DNA from: Rhodobacterales bacterium
GTDB taxonomy: Bacteria > Pseudomonadota > Alphaproteobacteria > Rhodobacterales > Rhodobacteraceae
Reading direction: 5' to 3'
NCBI GenBank assembly: GCA_002747325.1
Contig: PDOZ01000031.1
Location: 18,248 to 82,247 of the forward strand
DNA length: 64,000 nt
The notes beneath the pieces are model-generated. The model did no database searches and was not told where the DNA came from. It saw only the letters and a list, made by a program, of their open reading frames with translations. Below are positions 5,183 to 64,000 of this stretch, piece by piece. A program made the translations under genes and the position numbers. Position 1 is the first letter of the stretch; each line of letters begins with the position of its first letter.

Positions 5183-5485
5183 ATGTCACGTCTTCTGCTA
5201 CCCGCCACCCTCCTGCTCCTCGCCGCCACCCCTGCCAGCGCCGGCCGCATCGAACGCGCCTGCCTCGCATCTGATCTCAACGGCACCCGCCCGCTCTGCG
5301 CCTGCCTGCAAATCGTCGCCGACCAAACCCTGCCCAGCGCCTACCAACGCCGCGGCGCCGCCTTCTTCCGCAACCCCGACCTGAGCCAGAAAACCAAAAT
5401 GTCCGCAATCGACAACGCTTCCGACGCCCGGTTCTGGCAACACTGGCAATTATTCGGCCAACGCGCCGAAGCAACCTGCGGATAA
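5183..5485 (+). CDS. Small secreted protein of unknown function
   Basis: The ORF encodes 100 residues. The first ~20 (MSRLLLPATLLLLAATPASA) form a textbook Sec signal peptide with an ASA cleavage site. The mature part has four cysteines (residues about 28, 38, 40 and 99), which suggests disulfides in the periplasm, and a basic central segment. I do not recognise a named family. The arrangement CLASDL..RPLCACLQIVAD resembles short conserved Rhodobacteraceae exported proteins, but that is recollection rather than a search. It lies 66 bases after pfkB and could be co-transcribed with it. The decayed palindromic repeat begins right at its stop codon. Confidence 0.7.
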   Translation: MSRLLLPATLLLLAATPASAGRIERACLASDLNGTRPLCACLQIVADQTLPSAYQRRGAAFFRNPDLSQKTKMSAIDNASDARFWQHWQLFGQRAEATCG

Positions 5486-5598
5486 AACAGAAATCGCCAG
5501 ACCTGAGTCCAAATCTACGGCCCCGCAATCCGCAACCTGCCGATTTCGGGTGTAAATACTAACGCCTGACGTGACCATTTTAATCCAATACGCCCCCC
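5485..5598. repeat. Decayed copy of the ~115-bp nested palindromic repeat
   Basis: ACAGAAATCGCCAGACCTGA at the left matches the left end of the copy at 54688 (GCAGAAATCGCCCAATCTGA). A central AATCCGCA-acc-TGCCGATT hairpin occupies the position of the ATCAGCA/TGCTGAT stem in the other copies, and TTTCGGGT replaces the TTCGAACG core. The right half is degenerate. It is followed directly by the TTCTTCTTAG motif, as in two other copies. Confidence 0.45.
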
Positions 5599-5629
5599 TT
5601 CTTCTTAGCACAAATACTCAAACCCGGCG
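5599..5629 (+). repeat. TTCTTCTTAG-type gene-end motif, copy 1
   Basis: The sequence begins TTCTTCTTAGCACAAATACT and continues into CAAACCCGGCG. It is one of six near-identical copies in this window. This one lies between the small secreted-protein gene and cobB, 37 bases before the cobB start. Confidence 0.75.
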
Positions 5630-9953: not shown

Positions 9954-9985
9954 CGTGTTGTGAGTATTTGGACTAAGAAGAAGCC
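9954..9985 (-). repeat. TTCTTCTTAG-type gene-end motif, copy 2
   Basis: On the minus strand it reads TTCTTCTTAGTCCAAATACT followed by CACAACACGGCC. It is almost identical over 31 bases to the copy at 38806. It lies downstream of meaB in the sense direction. Confidence 0.75.
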
Positions 9986-10020
9986 CAGACCGAAGGGGAT
10001 AAAACACCCGCGCCCCTTCT

Positions 10021-10136
10021 TAGAGCAGAAATCGCTAAATTTGAATCAAAATTCTCTGCCTCTCCATCAGCATCCTGCTGATTTCGAACGCGAATTTTGA
10101 TGCACCACGTTGCAGATTAAATCGATTTCTTCTTAG
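10021..10136. repeat. Nested palindromic repeat, copy A
   Basis: The left end is TAGAGCAGAAATCGCTAAAT. Inner arms ATCAAAATTC and GAATTTTGAT enclose the central stem ATCAGCA-tcc-TGCTGAT, then the invariant core ATTTCGAACGCGAATTTTGA. The right arm GATTAAATCGATTTC merges into a TTCTTCTTAG motif. Confidence 0.85.
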
Positions 10137-10158
10137 CAAAAATACTCAAACCCGAGCG
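10127..10158 (+). repeat. TTCTTCTTAG-type gene-end motif, copy 3
   Basis: It reads TTCTTCTTAGCAAAAATACT then CAAACCCGAGCG. It is antisense to, and 25 bases from, the meaB stop codon, and it overlaps the right end of palindromic repeat copy A. Confidence 0.75.
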
Positions 10159-15042: not shown

Positions 15043-16518
15043 ATGAGCGATAAAGACAATCAGTGGAAAACGCTGGATAAAGACCTGAACAAGATCGGGC
15101 AGGTCGAACTGGCCACCAATTATGTTTCCCGCCCGATGGTGGGTATCGGCATCTCGCTGGTGTTCATCCTGATTGCGGCGATTGGCGCGGCTGTTTTCTT
15201 TGGCCAGCAACCGACCAATTTCGTCATCGTCGCCGCTGCGGCCTTTGGCGCTTACATGGCGCTCAATATCGGCGCCAATGACGTTGCCAACAATATGGGT
15301 CCGGCGGTGGGCGCCAATGCGCTGACCATGGGCGGGGCTATCGTCATTGCCGCGCTGTTTGAGAGCGCAGGGGCGTTGCTGGCCGGGGGCGATGTTGTTT
15401 CGACCATCTCCAAGGGCATTATCGACCCGACCTCGGTCGCCGATTCCAAGGTCTTCATCTGGGCCATGATGGCGGCGCTGATTTCCTCCGCCCTCTGGGT
15501 CAACCTCGCGACCTGGATCGGCGCGCCGGTTTCCACCACCCATTCCGTCGTTGGCGGCGTCATGGGCGCAGGGATCGCGGCGGCGGGGCTGTCGGCGGTC
15601 AACTGGGTCTCGATGTCGAAAATCGCCGCGTCCTGGGTCATTTCGCCGGTGCTGGGCGGGGCGATTGCCGCGTTGTTCCTCGCCTTCATCAAGGCCCGGA
15701 TCGTCTATCAGGACGACAAGATTGCCGCCGCGCGCCGCTGGGTTCCGGTGCTGATCGGCATCATGGCCGGGGCATTTGGCGCCTATCTCGCGGTGAAGGG
15801 GCTCAAGCGCGTGGTGAAAATCGATATCCCGACGGCGCTTCTCATTGGCGCGGCGGTTGGCGCGCTGGCCTATGTCATTTCCGCGCCGCTGATCCGCAAA
15901 CAATCCGAAGGGCTGGAAAACCGCAACAAGTCACTCAAAACCCTGTTCGGCCTGCCGCTGGTGATCTCCGCCGCGCTGCTGTCCTTTGCGCATGGGGCCA
16001 ATGACGTGGCCAACGCGGTCGGACCGCTCGCCGCCATCGTGCATGCCGAAAGCATCGGGGAATTTGCTGGCAAGGTCGCCATCCCGCTCTGGGTCATGGT
16101 GATCGGGGCGTTCGGCATTTCCTTCGGTCTCATGCTCTTCGGCCCGAAACTGATCCGCATGGTTGGCAGTCAGATCACCAAGCTCAACCCGATGCGCGCC
16201 TATTGCGTTTCCCTGTCCGCCGCCATCACGGTGATCGTTGCCTCCTGGCTCGGCCTGCCGGTTTCCTCGACCCATATCGCGGTTGGCGGCGTGTTCGGCG
16301 TTGGCTTTTACCGCGAATGGCACATGATCCGGCGTCGGCGCGAGGTAAACGCCGCGCAGCCGGATCACAAGCGCCTGCCGGGCGAGGAAATGCGCCGCCG
16401 CAAGCTGGTGCGCCGCTCACATTTCATGACCATCGTTGCCGCCTGGGTCATTACCGTGCCCGCAGCGGCGTTGATGTCTGGCGTGATCTTCCTGATGCTC
16501 AACGCCTTCGTATCATAG
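15043..16518 (+). CDS. Low-affinity inorganic phosphate transporter, PiT family
   Basis: I choose the ATG at 15043 (MSDKDNQWKTL), preceded by GGGGGAAG; the upstream ATG at 15019 has no such site. The 491-residue inner-membrane protein carries the paired PHO-4 signatures GANDVANNMGPAVG in the first half and HGANDVANAVGPLAA in the second. It has about ten hydrophobic helices, two SSTH-type loops (PVSTTHSVVGGV, PVSSTHIAVGGV) and a cytosolic Lys/Arg-rich loop near residues 420-455. It imports phosphate with H+ or a metal-phosphate complex. No PhoU-like gene precedes it. The TAG stop (16516-16518) is formed at the insertion point of a TA-flanked MITE-like element. Confidence 0.94.
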   Translation: MSDKDNQWKTLDKDLNKIGQVELATNYVSRPMVGIGISLVFILIAAIGAAVFFGQQPTNFVIVAAAAFGAYMALNIGANDVANNMGPAVGANALTMGGAIVIAALFESAGALLAGGDVVSTISKGIIDPTSVADSKVFIWAMMAALISSALWVNLATWIGAPVSTTHSVVGGVMGAGIAAAGLSAVNWVSMSKIAASWVISPVLGGAIAALFLAFIKARIVYQDDKIAAARRWVPVLIGIMAGAFGAYLAVKGLKRVVKIDIPTALLIGAAVGALAYVISAPLIRKQSEGLENRNKSLKTLFGLPLVISAALLSFAHGANDVANAVGPLAAIVHAESIGEFAGKVAIPLWVMVIGAFGISFGLMLFGPKLIRMVGSQITKLNPMRAYCVSLSAAITVIVASWLGLPVSSTHIAVGGVFGVGFYREWHMIRRRREVNAAQPDHKRLPGEEMRRRKLVRRSHFMTIVAAWVITVPAAALMSGVIFLMLNAFVS

Positions 16519-16823
16519 GGCGTAGACCCATAATCCCTGCGCCACTGGCGCCAAATCCGCGAAAGATCAGTGGGTTGGCGCGCGCAGGACATAGTGGGTC
16601 TATTTCCAAGCGCGTCGGGCTGCTGATATGTAGCGGATTTGACGTCGTTTTTCCGAAGGAAAACCGTTTACAGAAGGCCCGCCTGCGGCGGGACGATTTG
16701 CCAGATTTTTGCCCTGAGCGTCTTCGCGACCCCTTGAAATAGCCCCACTATTCCTGCGGCGCCGCTCATAGTCAGAGCAAAAATCTGACAAACCAGTGAT
16801 GCAGGGAGTATGGGTCTACGCCC
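16518..16823. mobile_element. 306-bp MITE-like element with 23-bp terminal inverted repeats and TA duplication
   Basis: The left terminus GGGCGTAGACCCATAATCCC and the inverted right terminus GGGCGTAGACCCATACTCCC match at 19 of 20 bases, and the match continues into TGC on both sides. TA flanks each end (16516-16517 and 16824-16825), the target duplication typical of IS630/Tc1-mariner transposition. Inside are further inverted pairs: GCAGGACATAGTGGGTCTAT (16580s) against GCAGGAATAGTGGGGCTATT inverted (16730s), and CAGATTTTTGCCCTGA against its near complement at 16777-16792, plus small hairpins CCCGCC-tgc-GGCGGG and TTTTCC-gaa-GGAAAA. There is no transposase, so it would be non-autonomous. Confidence 0.8.
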
Positions 16824-16828
16824 TACCA

Positions 16829-16858
16829 AACGGGCCGCCAGAAACCCGGCGGCCCGTT
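16829..16858. terminator. GC-rich hairpin 3' of the CDF transporter gene
   Basis: AACGGGCCGCC (16829-16839) pairs perfectly with GGCGGCCCGTT (16848-16858) across an 8-base loop. On the minus strand it lies 12 bases past the CDF stop. The trailing T tract is weak on both strands, so it may be a terminator or an mRNA 3' stabiliser. Confidence 0.6.
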
Positions 16859-30856: not shown

Positions 30857-30950
30857 GCTCATTTCCCCTGCATCGCGGCATTTACACCTTGTCGACACGG
30901 CCCATATACCCACCACCCCCCATAAAAACAAGCCCAAACCCGCCTTCTTC

Positions 30951-31064
30951 AGCAGAAGAAAACGATAAACCGGAATCACACCGCGCCGCCTCTCAATCTG
31001 CGCATCGCAGATTTCGAACGCGAATTTTGACACCTCAACCAACCTGAAATCATTTTCTTCTTAG
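30951..31064. repeat. Nested palindromic repeat, copy B (divergent)
   Basis: The left end reads AGCAGAAGAAAACGATAAAC. The central stem is ATCTGCG-cat-CGCAGAT, different in sequence from the other copies but still fully paired. The invariant core ATTTCGAACGCGAATTTTGA is kept, while the ATCAAAATTC left arm is lost. The right end runs into the TTCTTCTTAG motif. Confidence 0.75.
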
Positions 31065-31080
31065 CGAAAATACTCCGGGG
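31055..31080 (+). repeat. TTCTTCTTAG-type gene-end motif, copy 4
   Basis: It reads TTCTTCTTAGCGAAAATACT then CCGGGG. It lies antisense, 35 bases past the cmk stop, and overlaps the end of palindromic repeat copy B. Confidence 0.7.
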
Positions 31081-54655: not shown

Positions 54656-54685
54656 GCCCGGCAAAATACTGCCGGGCATTTTTTA
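54656..54685 (+). terminator. Rho-independent terminator of gcrA
   Basis: GCCCGGCA (54656-54663) and TGCCGGGC (54670-54677) pair over AAATAC and run into ATTTTTTAT. It begins 29 bases past the gcrA stop. Confidence 0.92.
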
Positions 54686-54687
54686 TC

Positions 54688-54800
54688 CAGAGCAGAAATC
54701 GCCCAATCTGAATCAAAATTCTCTGTCTCGGGGTCAGCATTCTGCTGATTTCGAACGCGAATTTTGATACTCAGTTTTGCAAATTAAGTCGATTTCGCTT
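54688..54800. repeat. Nested palindromic repeat, copy C, overlapping the 3' end of the UbiH-type gene
   Basis: It runs from AGAGCAGAAATCGCCCAATC, through ATCAAAATTC and the GTCAGCA-ttc-TGCTGAT stem, to the invariant core ATTTCGAACGCGAATTTTGA and the right end AAATTAAGTCGATTTCGCTT. The last codons and TAA stop of the minus-strand hydroxylase gene (54784 upward) lie inside it. Confidence 0.85.
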
Positions 54801-55992
54801 TTGCATGACCCTCAATTTCGGTCAATTTGTTCAGAATCCGATTGCGCACCGGGGGCAGGATATTGCCCAGCCGCAGCGCCGCGTCGCGCAGGAAACGCGC
54901 GGGCGGGCGGGTATCGGTGAAGAGCCGCACGATGGCGTTGGTGCCGTGATAAAGCGGCAGGACAACGCGCCGATGCGCCGCCTCATATTCCTTCAGCACC
55001 GTCAGATCGCCCAGATCCATGCCGCGCTTCTTGGCCCGCACCAGCGCCTCCGCCAGAAGCGTGCCGCCGGACAGGCCAAGGTTGTAGCCATGCGCCGTGA
55101 CCGGGTGCATTCCCACCGCCGCATCGCCCACCAGCGCAATGCGCGGCGCAACAAACTTACGCGCCAGCACAGCGACCAGCGGGTAAGGATGGCGTGGGCT
55201 GACCAGCGTCATCTTGCCCAACCGTCCCTCGAAACGCTGTTCGATTTCGGCGGCAAAATCCTCGTCCGACAGGTTCATCACCTCTTCCGCGCGGGTCGTC
55301 GGCAAGGTCACAACCACGGAGGACACATTGCCGACCATCGGCAGAATGGCGAGGGTCTGATCATAATGGAAACATTCGAACGCGGTGTCGTCATGCGGCT
55401 CGGTGTGGCTCATCTCGCAAACAATCACCGTGCGCCCGAAATCGAGACTATCCGCCGCGAGACCGAGCTTGCGGCGGATGGTGGAAAACCGGCTATCGGC
55501 CGCAATCAGCAACTTCGCTTCGATGCACCGCCCGTCTGAGAGATCAAACTCGCCGTGCCCCGGCAAAATGCGGGCGTTTTCAACCTGTTGCCCGGCGATC
55601 AGCATGACATTCTCCTGCCCATCCACAGCCTCGAAAGAGGCGCGGCGGATGGCGTCGTTGGGCAGGATGCGGCCGAGATACTCGGCCCCGGCGGCCTTGG
55701 CCTCGAATTGTAGCGCATAGGGCGAGGCGCCGTTCATCACCTTTGCGTCGCGGATCGTGCCAATGCGGCTCTCGTCGATTTTTTCCCAGATGCCAAGATC
55801 GCGCATCAGCTTCTCGGAAGTATGCGTCAGCGCAATGTCACGGCCATCTTCCGGCGGCGCGGCCAACACCGCTTCGCTCAGACCCTCGATAATGCACACT
55901 GAAATGCCGCTGCCCTCCAGCGCCCGCGCAAAGCCCAGCCCCGCCGGACCCGCACCAACCACGGCAATATCGAACTTCTCACGCTTCGCCAT
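54784..55992 (-). CDS. FAD-dependent UbiH/UbiM-type monooxygenase
   Basis: The ATG at 55992 (MAKREKFDIAVVGAGPAGLG) gives 402 residues. The FAD motif GAGPAG, the DG-type VMNGASPYALQF region, the middle ADSRFSTIRRKLGL and the second FAD motif LVGDAAVGMHPVTAHGYNLG place it in the ubiquinone-biosynthesis hydroxylase family (UbiH/UbiF/UbiM/Coq6). The ring position hydroxylated cannot be read from sequence. It is an inner-membrane-associated enzyme. The C-terminal KAKST and stop codon are supplied by a palindromic repeat. carB is upstream on the same strand. Confidence 0.85.
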   Translation of the reverse strand: MAKREKFDIAVVGAGPAGLGFARALEGSGISVCIIEGLSEAVLAAPPEDGRDIALTHTSEKLMRDLGIWEKIDESRIGTIRDAKVMNGASPYALQFEAKAAGAEYLGRILPNDAIRRASFEAVDGQENVMLIAGQQVENARILPGHGEFDLSDGRCIEAKLLIAADSRFSTIRRKLGLAADSLDFGRTVIVCEMSHTEPHDDTAFECFHYDQTLAILPMVGNVSSVVVTLPTTRAEEVMNLSDEDFAAEIEQRFEGRLGKMTLVSPRHPYPLVAVLARKFVAPRIALVGDAAVGMHPVTAHGYNLGLSGGTLLAEALVRAKKRGMDLGDLTVLKEYEAAHRRVVLPLYHGTNAIVRLFTDTRPPARFLRDAALRLGNILPPVRNRILNKLTEIEGHAKAKST

Positions 55993-56086
55993 ACCCGCCT
56001 CCATCGCGTTGCAGATACCCGAGTTTCGCGCTCTTTGCCCCGGATGTCCAGCGATGCCCCCGAGGCGTTACCGTTATCGTGACGCT

Positions 56087-63762: not shown

Positions 63763-63792
63763 GCCGCGGTGCGCGCATTGCAGAAGTCGCGT

Positions 63793-63907
63793 TAGAGCAG
63801 AAATCGATAAATCTTAATCAAAATTCGCTGCCTCGCCATCAGCATGCTGCTGATTTCGAACGCGAATTTTGATACTTGATGTTGCTGATTAAATCGATTT
63901 CGCTCTA
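63793..63907. repeat. Nested palindromic repeat, copy D (most complete)
   Basis: The outer arms TAGAGCAGAAATCGATAAAT and the inverted TAGAGCGAAATCGATTTAAT are nearly perfect, so the whole 115 bases form a palindrome. Inner arms ATCAAAATTC/GAATTTTGAT and the ATCAGCA-tgc-TGCTGAT stem enclose the invariant core ATTTCGAACGCGAATTTTGA. TA lies at both ends, as in TA-target mobile elements. Confidence 0.9.
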
Positions 63908-63921
63908 GGCTGAATCGACAT

Positions 63922-64000
63922 TCATCGCATCCATAGCATCGCTGATGCGAGATGGATGAAGCTGAGAAAGTAGACGGCGCGCCTGTCGAAGCGGGTCGCG
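63922..64000 (-). pseudogene. C-terminal end of an IS5-type transposase (cut by window edge)
   Basis: The minus strand from the right edge encodes ATRFDRRAVYFLSFIHLA then SAMLWMR and a TGA at 63922-63924. The T-R-F-D-R-R-A...F-L-S...L-A sequence is the typical C-terminal end of IS5/IS1182-group DDE transposases. Only 25 codons are visible, so whether the gene is intact cannot be judged. The element's end should lie between 63924 and the palindromic repeat that ends at 63907; a CTAG there (63905-63908) would fit an IS5-type target site. Classed as pseudogene only because it is partial here. Confidence 0.65.

What the first reader, a model, noticed from the sequence alone, without database searches (positions are those of the whole stretch)
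10021..10136. A family of ~115-bp nested palindromes with an invariant core and compensatory stem changes
Four copies (10021-10136, 30951-31064, 54688-54800, 63793-63907) and a decayed fifth (5485-5598) lie in 64 kb, always between genes. All four share the identical core ATTTCGAACGCGAATTTTGA. The stem before it is ATCAGCA/TGCTGAT in three copies but ATCTGCG/CGCAGAT in copy B: the letters changed on both sides and the pairing was kept. Palindromic outer arms and terminal TA suggest a MITE-like origin; the paired changes suggest the folded form has been under selection or copies derive from distinct active variants. At about one per 16 kb, a genome would hold hundreds.
Basis: seen in the sequence. 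Interest (0 to 1): 0.7.

Follow-up and report, generated by a model that had tools for sequence, protein, structure and literature searches.

The report
Mobile hairpin with drifting, matched arms
A DNA hairpin of about 115 letters sits in about 70 places of this bacterium's genome and in roughly one in ten related genera; its arms change letters but stay matched while its inner loop stays fixed, so it likely spreads with the help of an unidentified enzyme that would read its folded shape.

Summary
Four intact copies and one decayed copy lie in the window; a covariance model finds 69 places in the 1.99-Mb draft genome, fewer than the forecast hundreds. The core motif occurs in 39 of 394 Rhodobacteraceae genomes (reversed control 0) and in 0 of 140 genomes of other alphaproteobacterial families. 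Across genera the arms differ but stay complementary: own-arm pairing exceeds all 20,000 permutations in three stems. The internal-loop strands GCTGCCTCTC and TCGAACGCG and a 3' bulge persist. Copies tend to end in TA, often at a neighbour's stop codon; occupied and empty versions of two sites exist in roseobacter plasmids. At one non-coding plasmid site stems and loops changed far less than fourfold-degenerate sites, so some copies look domesticated. G-T and A-C mispairs are about equally common, so no single RNA strand is favoured. I read it as a new MITE-like palindromic repeat, probably recognised by its fold; no transposase partner was found. The closest parallel is Brucella Bru-RS1 with IS711: an IS5-like element abuts the repeat's ends at 5 of 12 places.

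The parts
10021..10136 (+). Copy A of the hairpin element; right terminus replaced by TTCTTCTTAG
   Evidence: exact core 10081-10100; R1 match 10018-10138, E 3.7e-30
30951..31064 (+). Copy B: compensated tip, middle stem broken, right terminus replaced by TTCTTCTTAG
   Evidence: exact core 31011-31030; R1 match 30948-31066, E 7.5e-14; fold
54688..54802 (+). Copy C, overlapping the 3' end of the converging gene called at 54784-56004
   Evidence: exact core 54748-54767; R1 match 54685-54805, E 1.9e-29; gene call
63793..63907 (+). Copy D, the best-paired window copy, TA to TA
   Evidence: exact core 63853-63872; R1 match 63790-63910, E 1.2e-31; z -6.2 on both strands
5480..5600 (+). Copy E, decayed
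   Evidence: R1 E 6e-4; does not fold beyond shuffles
63793..63812 (+). Copy D, left outer arm (terminal TA, outer stem)
   Evidence: structure counted; sequence
63885..63907 (+). Copy D, right outer arm ending in CTA
   Evidence: structure counted; sequence
63817..63828 (+). Copy D, middle stem, 5' strand (pairs with 63862-63873)
   Evidence: fold
63829..63861 (+). Copy D, conserved internal loop strands and tip hairpin (63838-63844 pairs with 63848-63854)
   Evidence: fold; cross-genus comparison
63862..63873 (+). Copy D, middle stem, 3' strand
   Evidence: fold
63874..63884 (+). Copy D, 3' bulge
   Evidence: fold; cross-genus comparison
63908..64000 (.). End of an IS5-like insertion sequence directly abutting copy D's terminal CTA; the contig ends here
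   Evidence: GGCTGAATCGACATTCATCGCATC at 63908-63931, one of 12 such places in the genome

Best explanation
These repeats are copies of a dispersed, TA-ended hairpin element of the Rhodobacteraceae that is likely moved in trans by an unidentified TA-targeting enzyme, which would recognise the folded hairpin by its fixed internal loop rather than by the letters of its arms. Shown by sequence: terminal TA in most copies, similar copies at unrelated sites, occupied and empty versions of two plasmid sites, arms that differ between genera but stay complementary, two conserved internal-loop strands with a persistent 3' bulge, and no strand preference. Shown by rate comparison at one non-coding plasmid site: stems and loops change far more slowly than fourfold-degenerate sites of the flanking genes. 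Inferred: recognition by shape, the enzyme, and that the constrained plasmid copies act as intercistronic hairpins for conjugation genes. Insertion at the TA of a stop codon is probably tolerated because the element's own TA[AG] end can serve as the stop.
For: 69 places in G000. Motif in 39 of 394 family genomes, reversed control 0. Own-arm pairing against other arms: outer 11.82 against 6.52, middle 6.78 against 1.52, tip -0.40 against -2.89, each above every one of 20,000 permutations; same with 30 clusters. G-T 100 against A-C 89 in this genome, 57 against 67 across genera. Site pairs in plasmids: virB8-virB5 gap filled in 13 opened records and 16 nt long in L176; second site filled in 4 and empty in L172 and L173. 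G311 has 10 full copies, 7 with TA at both ends, and its two congeners none by DNA search. Rate test at site 1: 0.361 fourfold, 0.033 stems, 0.009 loops, 0.252 bulge. TA at a neighbour's stop codon in 17 of 57 own copies (15.9% expected, P 0.006) and 21 of 54 others.
Against: No enzyme identified. No clean TA duplication: the occupied and empty plasmids are too diverged to read it. Within this genome the excess of double changes is moderate and 12.4% of cells do not pair. Own partner is the best or tied-best arm in only 25 of 40 (outer), 33 of 40 (middle) and 11 of 40 (tip) loci. Some of the 40 loci look like the same plasmid site. Arm-only remnants and core-less hairpins exist. The second and third constrained sites lie in annotated coding sequence, so protein-level selection may explain them.
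Confidence: 0.45

Rival explanations
1. Ordinary MITE: the outer arms are terminal inverted repeats read as double-stranded sequence by resident IS5- or IS630-type transposases, each genome's arms matching its own transposase; the fold is incidental.
For: TA ends suit such transposases (recalled). Within a genome the arms are similar, for example G311, G208, G400 and G232. IS5-like elements are present in G000.
Against: 53 of 54 arm matches in G000 lie inside R1 places and the other is a core-less hairpin; in the 99%-complete G311 the extra arm matches I opened are lone arms or short hairpins. The IS end shares no arm sequence. It does not explain matched middle stems and tips and a conserved loop across genera.
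Confidence: 0.3
2. Hairpin-templated correction: one arm copies the other during replication or repair, so arms drift together by mutation without selection on the fold.
For: In this genome parsimony gives 36 origins for 37 double Watson-Crick cells, that is scattered single-copy events, on poorly resolved trees. Core-less remnants show tip deletions.
Against: The same process should also erase the internal loop and bulge, yet both persist across genera. It does not explain slow change at a fixed plasmid site.
Confidence: 0.13
3. RNA element: the copies act as transcribed hairpins (processing, stability or termination), and selection on the RNA keeps the pairing.
For: Copies avoid divergent gene pairs: 2 of 47 own and 2 of 52 other non-edge copies against 49 of 265 background gaps. 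Intercistronic site 1 is conserved.
Against: No G-T excess over A-C on either strand. Mixed orientation to tandem genes: 15 same and 9 opposite in this genome, 12 and 20 elsewhere. No Rfam match. Many copies here are decaying. Selection on both strands would escape the wobble test.
Confidence: 0.12

Closest known systems
Brucella Bru-RS1 / Bru-RS2 with IS711 (passages of PMC2266754 and PMC3163539 seen)
   Same: Palindromic repeat of about 103 bp (Bru-RS1) in an alphaproteobacterium, a reported putative hot spot for an IS that duplicates TA at YTAR; here an IS5-like element abuts the repeat's YTA ends at 5 of 12 places.
   Different: Sequences were not compared. Matched arm drift across genera with a fixed internal loop, and constrained plasmid copies, are not mentioned in the passages I saw.
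MITEs of bacteria (review PMC10969869, passages seen)
   Same: Short, dispersed, inverted ends, stem-loop forming, similar copies within a genome.
   Different: No IS with the same ends found; the inner stems and loop are kept across genera while the ends are not.
Rickettsia palindromic elements (one passage of PMC10969869)
   Same: Palindromic elements that can sit in frame inside genes; here in an HTH gene of three plasmids and in a small gene before virB4 in three plasmids.
   Different: Shorter, and most copies are at gene ends or between genes; sequences not compared.
REP elements moved by RAYT transposases (abstract start and a term search of PMC3733652 seen)
   Same: Dispersed palindromes outside genes; the idea of a hairpin-reading enzyme (recalled).
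   Different: About 110 nt rather than 20-40; TA ends; Y1 transposase found in only 3 of 10 host genomes tested.
Integron attC sites (recalled, not read here)
   Same: Works-like resemblance: variable sequence, kept fold with bulges, often next to gene ends.
   Different: Termini are TA[AG]AGC by eye; integrase and attC boxes were not searched.

Membership tests
MITE | short, non-coding, present in several similar copies with unrelated flanks | tested here: met
   about 115 nt, 69 places; G311 copies share no flanks by eye
MITE | terminal inverted repeats | tested here: met
   outer stem pairing 88.0% of cells in 54 copies; cross-genus
MITE | target-site duplication | tested here: inconclusive
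   TA at both ends in 7 of 10 full G311 copies, but TA may belong to the element; empty plasmid sites too diverged to show a duplication
MITE | autonomous IS with the same ends | tested here: not met
   none found by arm search in G000 (78% complete) or in G311 (five extra regions opened, ORFs listed for two)
REP / RAYT | Y1 transposase in the host | tested here: not met
   PF01797 in 3 of 10 element-bearing genomes, the G000 match with an internal stop
Bru-RS | sequence similarity to Bru-RS1 or Bru-RS2 | not tested
   no Bru-RS sequence was fetched
Bru-RS | IS with TA target inserts at the repeat | tested here: met
   5 of 12 IS ends abut an element terminus, P 2.5e-9 from an extrapolated YTA count
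Structured RNA of Rfam | match to a known family | tested here: not met
   no gathering match in the window; at E <= 1 only a tRNA-Sec-like stretch away from the element in L088
Strand-specific RNA | G-U tolerated more than A-C on one strand | tested here: not met
   100 against 89 and 57 against 67
Integron attC | R-box termini and an integron integrase | not tested
   termini TA[AG]AGC read by eye only; integrase not searched

The most novel reading that the evidence does not exclude
A mobile element recognised by shape: the moving enzyme reads an extruded hairpin through a fixed internal loop and bulge, leaving the arms free to drift as long as they match, so each genome evolves its own arms; plasmid copies have been domesticated as structural parts of conjugation operons.
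Probability: 0.3. Interest if true: 0.82.

Novelty: new variant of a known kind. Interest (0 to 1): 0.6.

Why it matters
This family keeps its fold and a small internal loop while its arms change freely between genera, which points to shape as the recognised feature and offers a natural experiment on hairpin-based mobility. A fixed copy in the type IV secretion operon of roseobacter plasmids, conserved while fourfold-degenerate sites of the neighbouring genes have diverged by about a third, suggests that such repeats can become working parts of conjugation systems. It also gives a Rhodobacteraceae parallel to the unexplained preference of IS711 for Bru-RS repeats.

Tried and rejected
Rfam: no match to the element. 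Autonomous partner by arm search: none found. REP/RAYT: Y1 transposase lacking in 7 of 10 hosts. RNA-strand selection by wobble bias: not seen; at plasmid site 1 only 6 wobble cells occur (4 on the transcript strand, 2 on the other), too few to use. Empty site by DNA search in the genus of G311: flanking genes are not adjacent in the congeners, uninformative. Phage records: none. Window-type element in plasmids: none. RNAalifold on A2 gave a weak consensus (-7.1 kcal/mol); I counted a hand-named structure instead, chosen with the sequences in view; two of its 43 pairs mostly fail. Papers: seven searches listed no report of this repeat in Rhodobacteraceae among the titles and abstract starts shown; the library lacks most subscription journals. 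PMC11481893 (passages): hairpin, stem-loop, palindrom- and oriT do not occur. PMC3733652 (term search): five Rhodobacterales-related words do not occur. PMC2267715 (term search): names Bru-RS1 only in its references.

Rows dropped: A2 holds 54 of 57 copies (L031, L051, L056 left out: rearranged arm or insertion). Of 62 loci parsed, 22 were dropped to 40: duplicates and near-identical or same-site copies, truncated ones (L101, L115), three without a located core (L097, L106, L128), and L113, L118, L121, L124, judged doubtful by eye although on re-reading their arms do pair. One search used those 40; one search added L013 and dropped L077. Some of the 40 look like one plasmid site (L099, L116, L140; L135, L136); the 30-cluster rerun reduces this. 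A first automatic core finder misplaced many cores and was replaced. L180 was left out of the rate test (same element and virB8 protein accession as L179); L111 was left out of the relaxase test (its relaxase is annotated in pieces).

Full report
WHAT IS THERE. The core ATTTCGAACGCGAATTTTGA occurs four times in the window, all exact, against 0.02 expected in shuffles. In the window's own genome (G000, 1,986,092 bases, 46 contigs, 78% complete) it occurs 57 times with up to two mismatches; the backward control gives none. A covariance model of 54 of these copies (R1) gives 70 rows, which are 69 distinct places since one is listed on both strands; 150 of 924 first-look candidates were scored. 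It includes the five window copies, the fifth only at E 6e-4. By my comparison of the two lists, 56 of the 57 core hits are among them; the missing one, L051, is a half element. The consensus is about 115 nt: TAGAGCAGAAATCGCTAAATCTGAATCAAAATTC-TCTGCCTCTCC-ATCAGCATCCTGCTGAT-TTCGAACGCGAATTTTGATGCTCGATGTTGCAGATTAAAGCGATTTCGCTCTA. In 60 relatives the window-type core was absent at one mismatch.

FOLD AND PAIRED CHANGES IN THIS GENOME. With 43 pairs named by me, 87.6% of cells are standard pairs (shuffled 86.0, 0 of 500 shuffles reach it). There are 39 cells with both sides changed (shuffled 17.1, 0 of 500) and 15 pairs with such a change (10.5, 7 of 500); sliding one arm by 1-3 columns drops pairing to 30-42%. 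Parsimony gives 36 origins for 37 double Watson-Crick cells, on poorly resolved trees. 12.4% of cells do not pair, about a third of them in two of the pairs I named; the rest shows decay. The paired changes are real but moderate in this genome.

THE FAMILY ACROSS GENERA. R1 matched 25 of 394 Rhodobacteraceae genomes including G000, with nine candidates scored per genome, so a lower bound. The exact pattern GCTGCCTCTC-N(2-25)-TCGAACGCG is in 39 of 394 (one genome per genus), with 0 matches for the reversed pattern; not every exact match need be an element. In a class-wide sample of 142 genomes only G000 has it; 140 of them belong to other families. Named carriers from the genome collection are two dolphin-oral Rhodobacterales MAGs and Ruegeria sp. 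HKCCD8929, with 7, 1 and 5 R1 matches. Three other contigs from that scan share one sequence without matched arms and look like chance. The copies share one anatomy: terminal TA, usually TA[AG]AGC or a relative of it; an outer stem whose letters differ between genera; a middle stem; a 3' bulge; the two internal-loop strands; and a tip hairpin, often CC-NNN-GG or GC-NNN-GC. To test pairing without an alignment I scored each left arm against its own and every other right arm in 40 loci: outer stem 11.82 own against 6.52 other (best of 20,000 permutations 8.07), middle 6.78 against 1.52 (3.38), tip -0.40 against -2.89 (-1.27). The own partner was best or tied best in 25, 33 and 11 of 40. One locus per cluster (30) gives the same picture.

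DNA OR RNA. If one RNA strand were selected, G-U would be tolerated on that strand and A-C not. G-T and A-C cells number 100 and 89 in this genome and 57 and 67 across genera. Neither strand is favoured. This does not exclude selection on both strands. Orientation to tandem genes is mixed: 15 same and 9 opposite here, 12 and 20 elsewhere.

MOVEMENT. In G311 ten full copies share the element but not, by eye, the flanks; 7 of 10 have TA at both ends. Its two congeners show no copy in a DNA search with one G311 locus. Blastn with a common-type copy hits 23 plasmid records, 19 typed conjugative; I opened 20 of the 23. In 13 the element fills the virB8-virB5 gap; L176 has a 16-nt gap there and no element. 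In 4 (L176, L178, L181, L190) it sits at the start of a small gene before virB4, annotated in 3 of the 4; L172 and L173 have that site empty. Three of the 20 lie elsewhere. In the 13 filled gaps the virB5 stop codon is TAA or TAG at the element's end; in the empty one it is TGA. In four other plasmids a full copy (model E 1e-7 to 5e-7) lies at the end of an HTH gene just before a MOBP relaxase gene; the HTH gene is annotated in three of the four. With my own hexamer gene caller, the terminal TA lies within 3 nt of being a neighbour's stop codon in 17 of 57 own and 21 of 54 other copies, four of these at both ends; for own copies 15.9% is expected (P 0.006). The others are not independent, since some share a plasmid site. 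Divergent gene pairs are avoided: 2 of 47 own and 2 of 52 other non-edge copies against 49 of 265 background gaps.

CONSTRAINT AFTER INSERTION. At the virB8-virB5 site, 12 plasmids (66 pairs) give mean distances of 0.361 at fourfold sites of the two flanking genes, 0.033 in stems, 0.009 in loop strands, 0.252 in bulge and asymmetric parts and 0.214 in the 5' flank. Whole-element gene conversion would also homogenise the bulge, so selection on the folded part is the simpler reading. At the second site fourfold distances are 0.17-0.23, stems 2-4 of 59, loops 0 of 18, bulge 2-6 of 22; at the relaxase site (3 plasmids) fourfold 0.23-0.28, stems 0-1 of 53, loops 0 of 18. Those two sites lie in annotated coding sequence, so protein-level selection may contribute. 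What the element does at site 1 is not known; an intercistronic hairpin acting on the mRNA is my guess.

PARTNER. An IS5-like insertion sequence ends at YTA; its last 75 residues match DDE_Tnp_1_2 at 23 bits, below Pfam's cut-off. At 5 of its 12 ends in G000 that YTA is an element terminus; such termini are about 0.5% of YTA sites by extrapolation from the window (P 2.5e-9). Eleven of the 12 lie within 200 nt of a contig end. Its end shares no arm sequence, so it appears to use the element as a target rather than to be its parent. The parallel is IS711 on Bru-RS1 (PMC2266754, PMC3163539; passages). Arm searches: 53 of 54 hits in G000 lie in R1 places, the other is a core-less hairpin; in G311 the five extra places opened hold lone arms, short hairpins or chance matches, and the ORFs listed for two of them do not look like transposases to me. 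Y1 transposase is in 3 of 10 host genomes.

VERDICT. A Rhodobacteraceae-wide family of dispersed hairpins, MITE-like in anatomy, set apart by free but matched arms, a fixed internal loop, and at least one conserved plasmid site. I found no report of it in the papers searched. The moving enzyme and the role of the fixed copies are open.

Noticed in passing
window 63908-64000; contig ends in L058-L069: An IS5-like insertion sequence end recurs at 12 places in the genome, 11 of them within 200 nt of a contig end; 5 abut this hairpin and at least 2 more abut another palindromic repeat ending TACGCCCTA.
   Followed up: partly
window 16509-16548 and 16793-16832: A second inverted repeat (85% complementary, 244 nt apart) with the GGGTCTACGCCCTA motif also seen beside IS ends in L058 and, in part, L067.
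   Followed up: no
window 9960-9985, 10126-10150, 31050-31075, 5570-5605: A TTCTTCTTAGC...AAATACTC motif flanks or replaces the ends of several copies, sometimes as an inverted pair around a copy.
   Followed up: no
L051 2514-2552; L236 501-533; G311 C1:452998-453059: Core-less short hairpins made of the outer arms alone, with TA at the ends in the two G000 and G311 cases read.
   Followed up: partly
L167, L168 (IMG/VR viral contigs): Full elements by model R1 (E 1.6e-4 and 1.6e-7) in two contigs catalogued as viral, of five tested out of 17 that hold the exact motif.
   Followed up: partly
L006 and L070 (PDRY01000026.1): 3,020 bases of this genome's contig C7 are 100% identical to a contig of the MAG DOLJORAL78_64_13, which suggests a contig shared between two bins.
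   Followed up: no
L109-L112: In four mobilizable plasmids a full element sits directly before the relaxase gene, a place where a transfer origin could lie; not tested.
   Followed up: partly
L088 654-737: A weak selenocysteine-tRNA-like match (38.3 bits, below the gathering score of 47) in G311.
   Followed up: no
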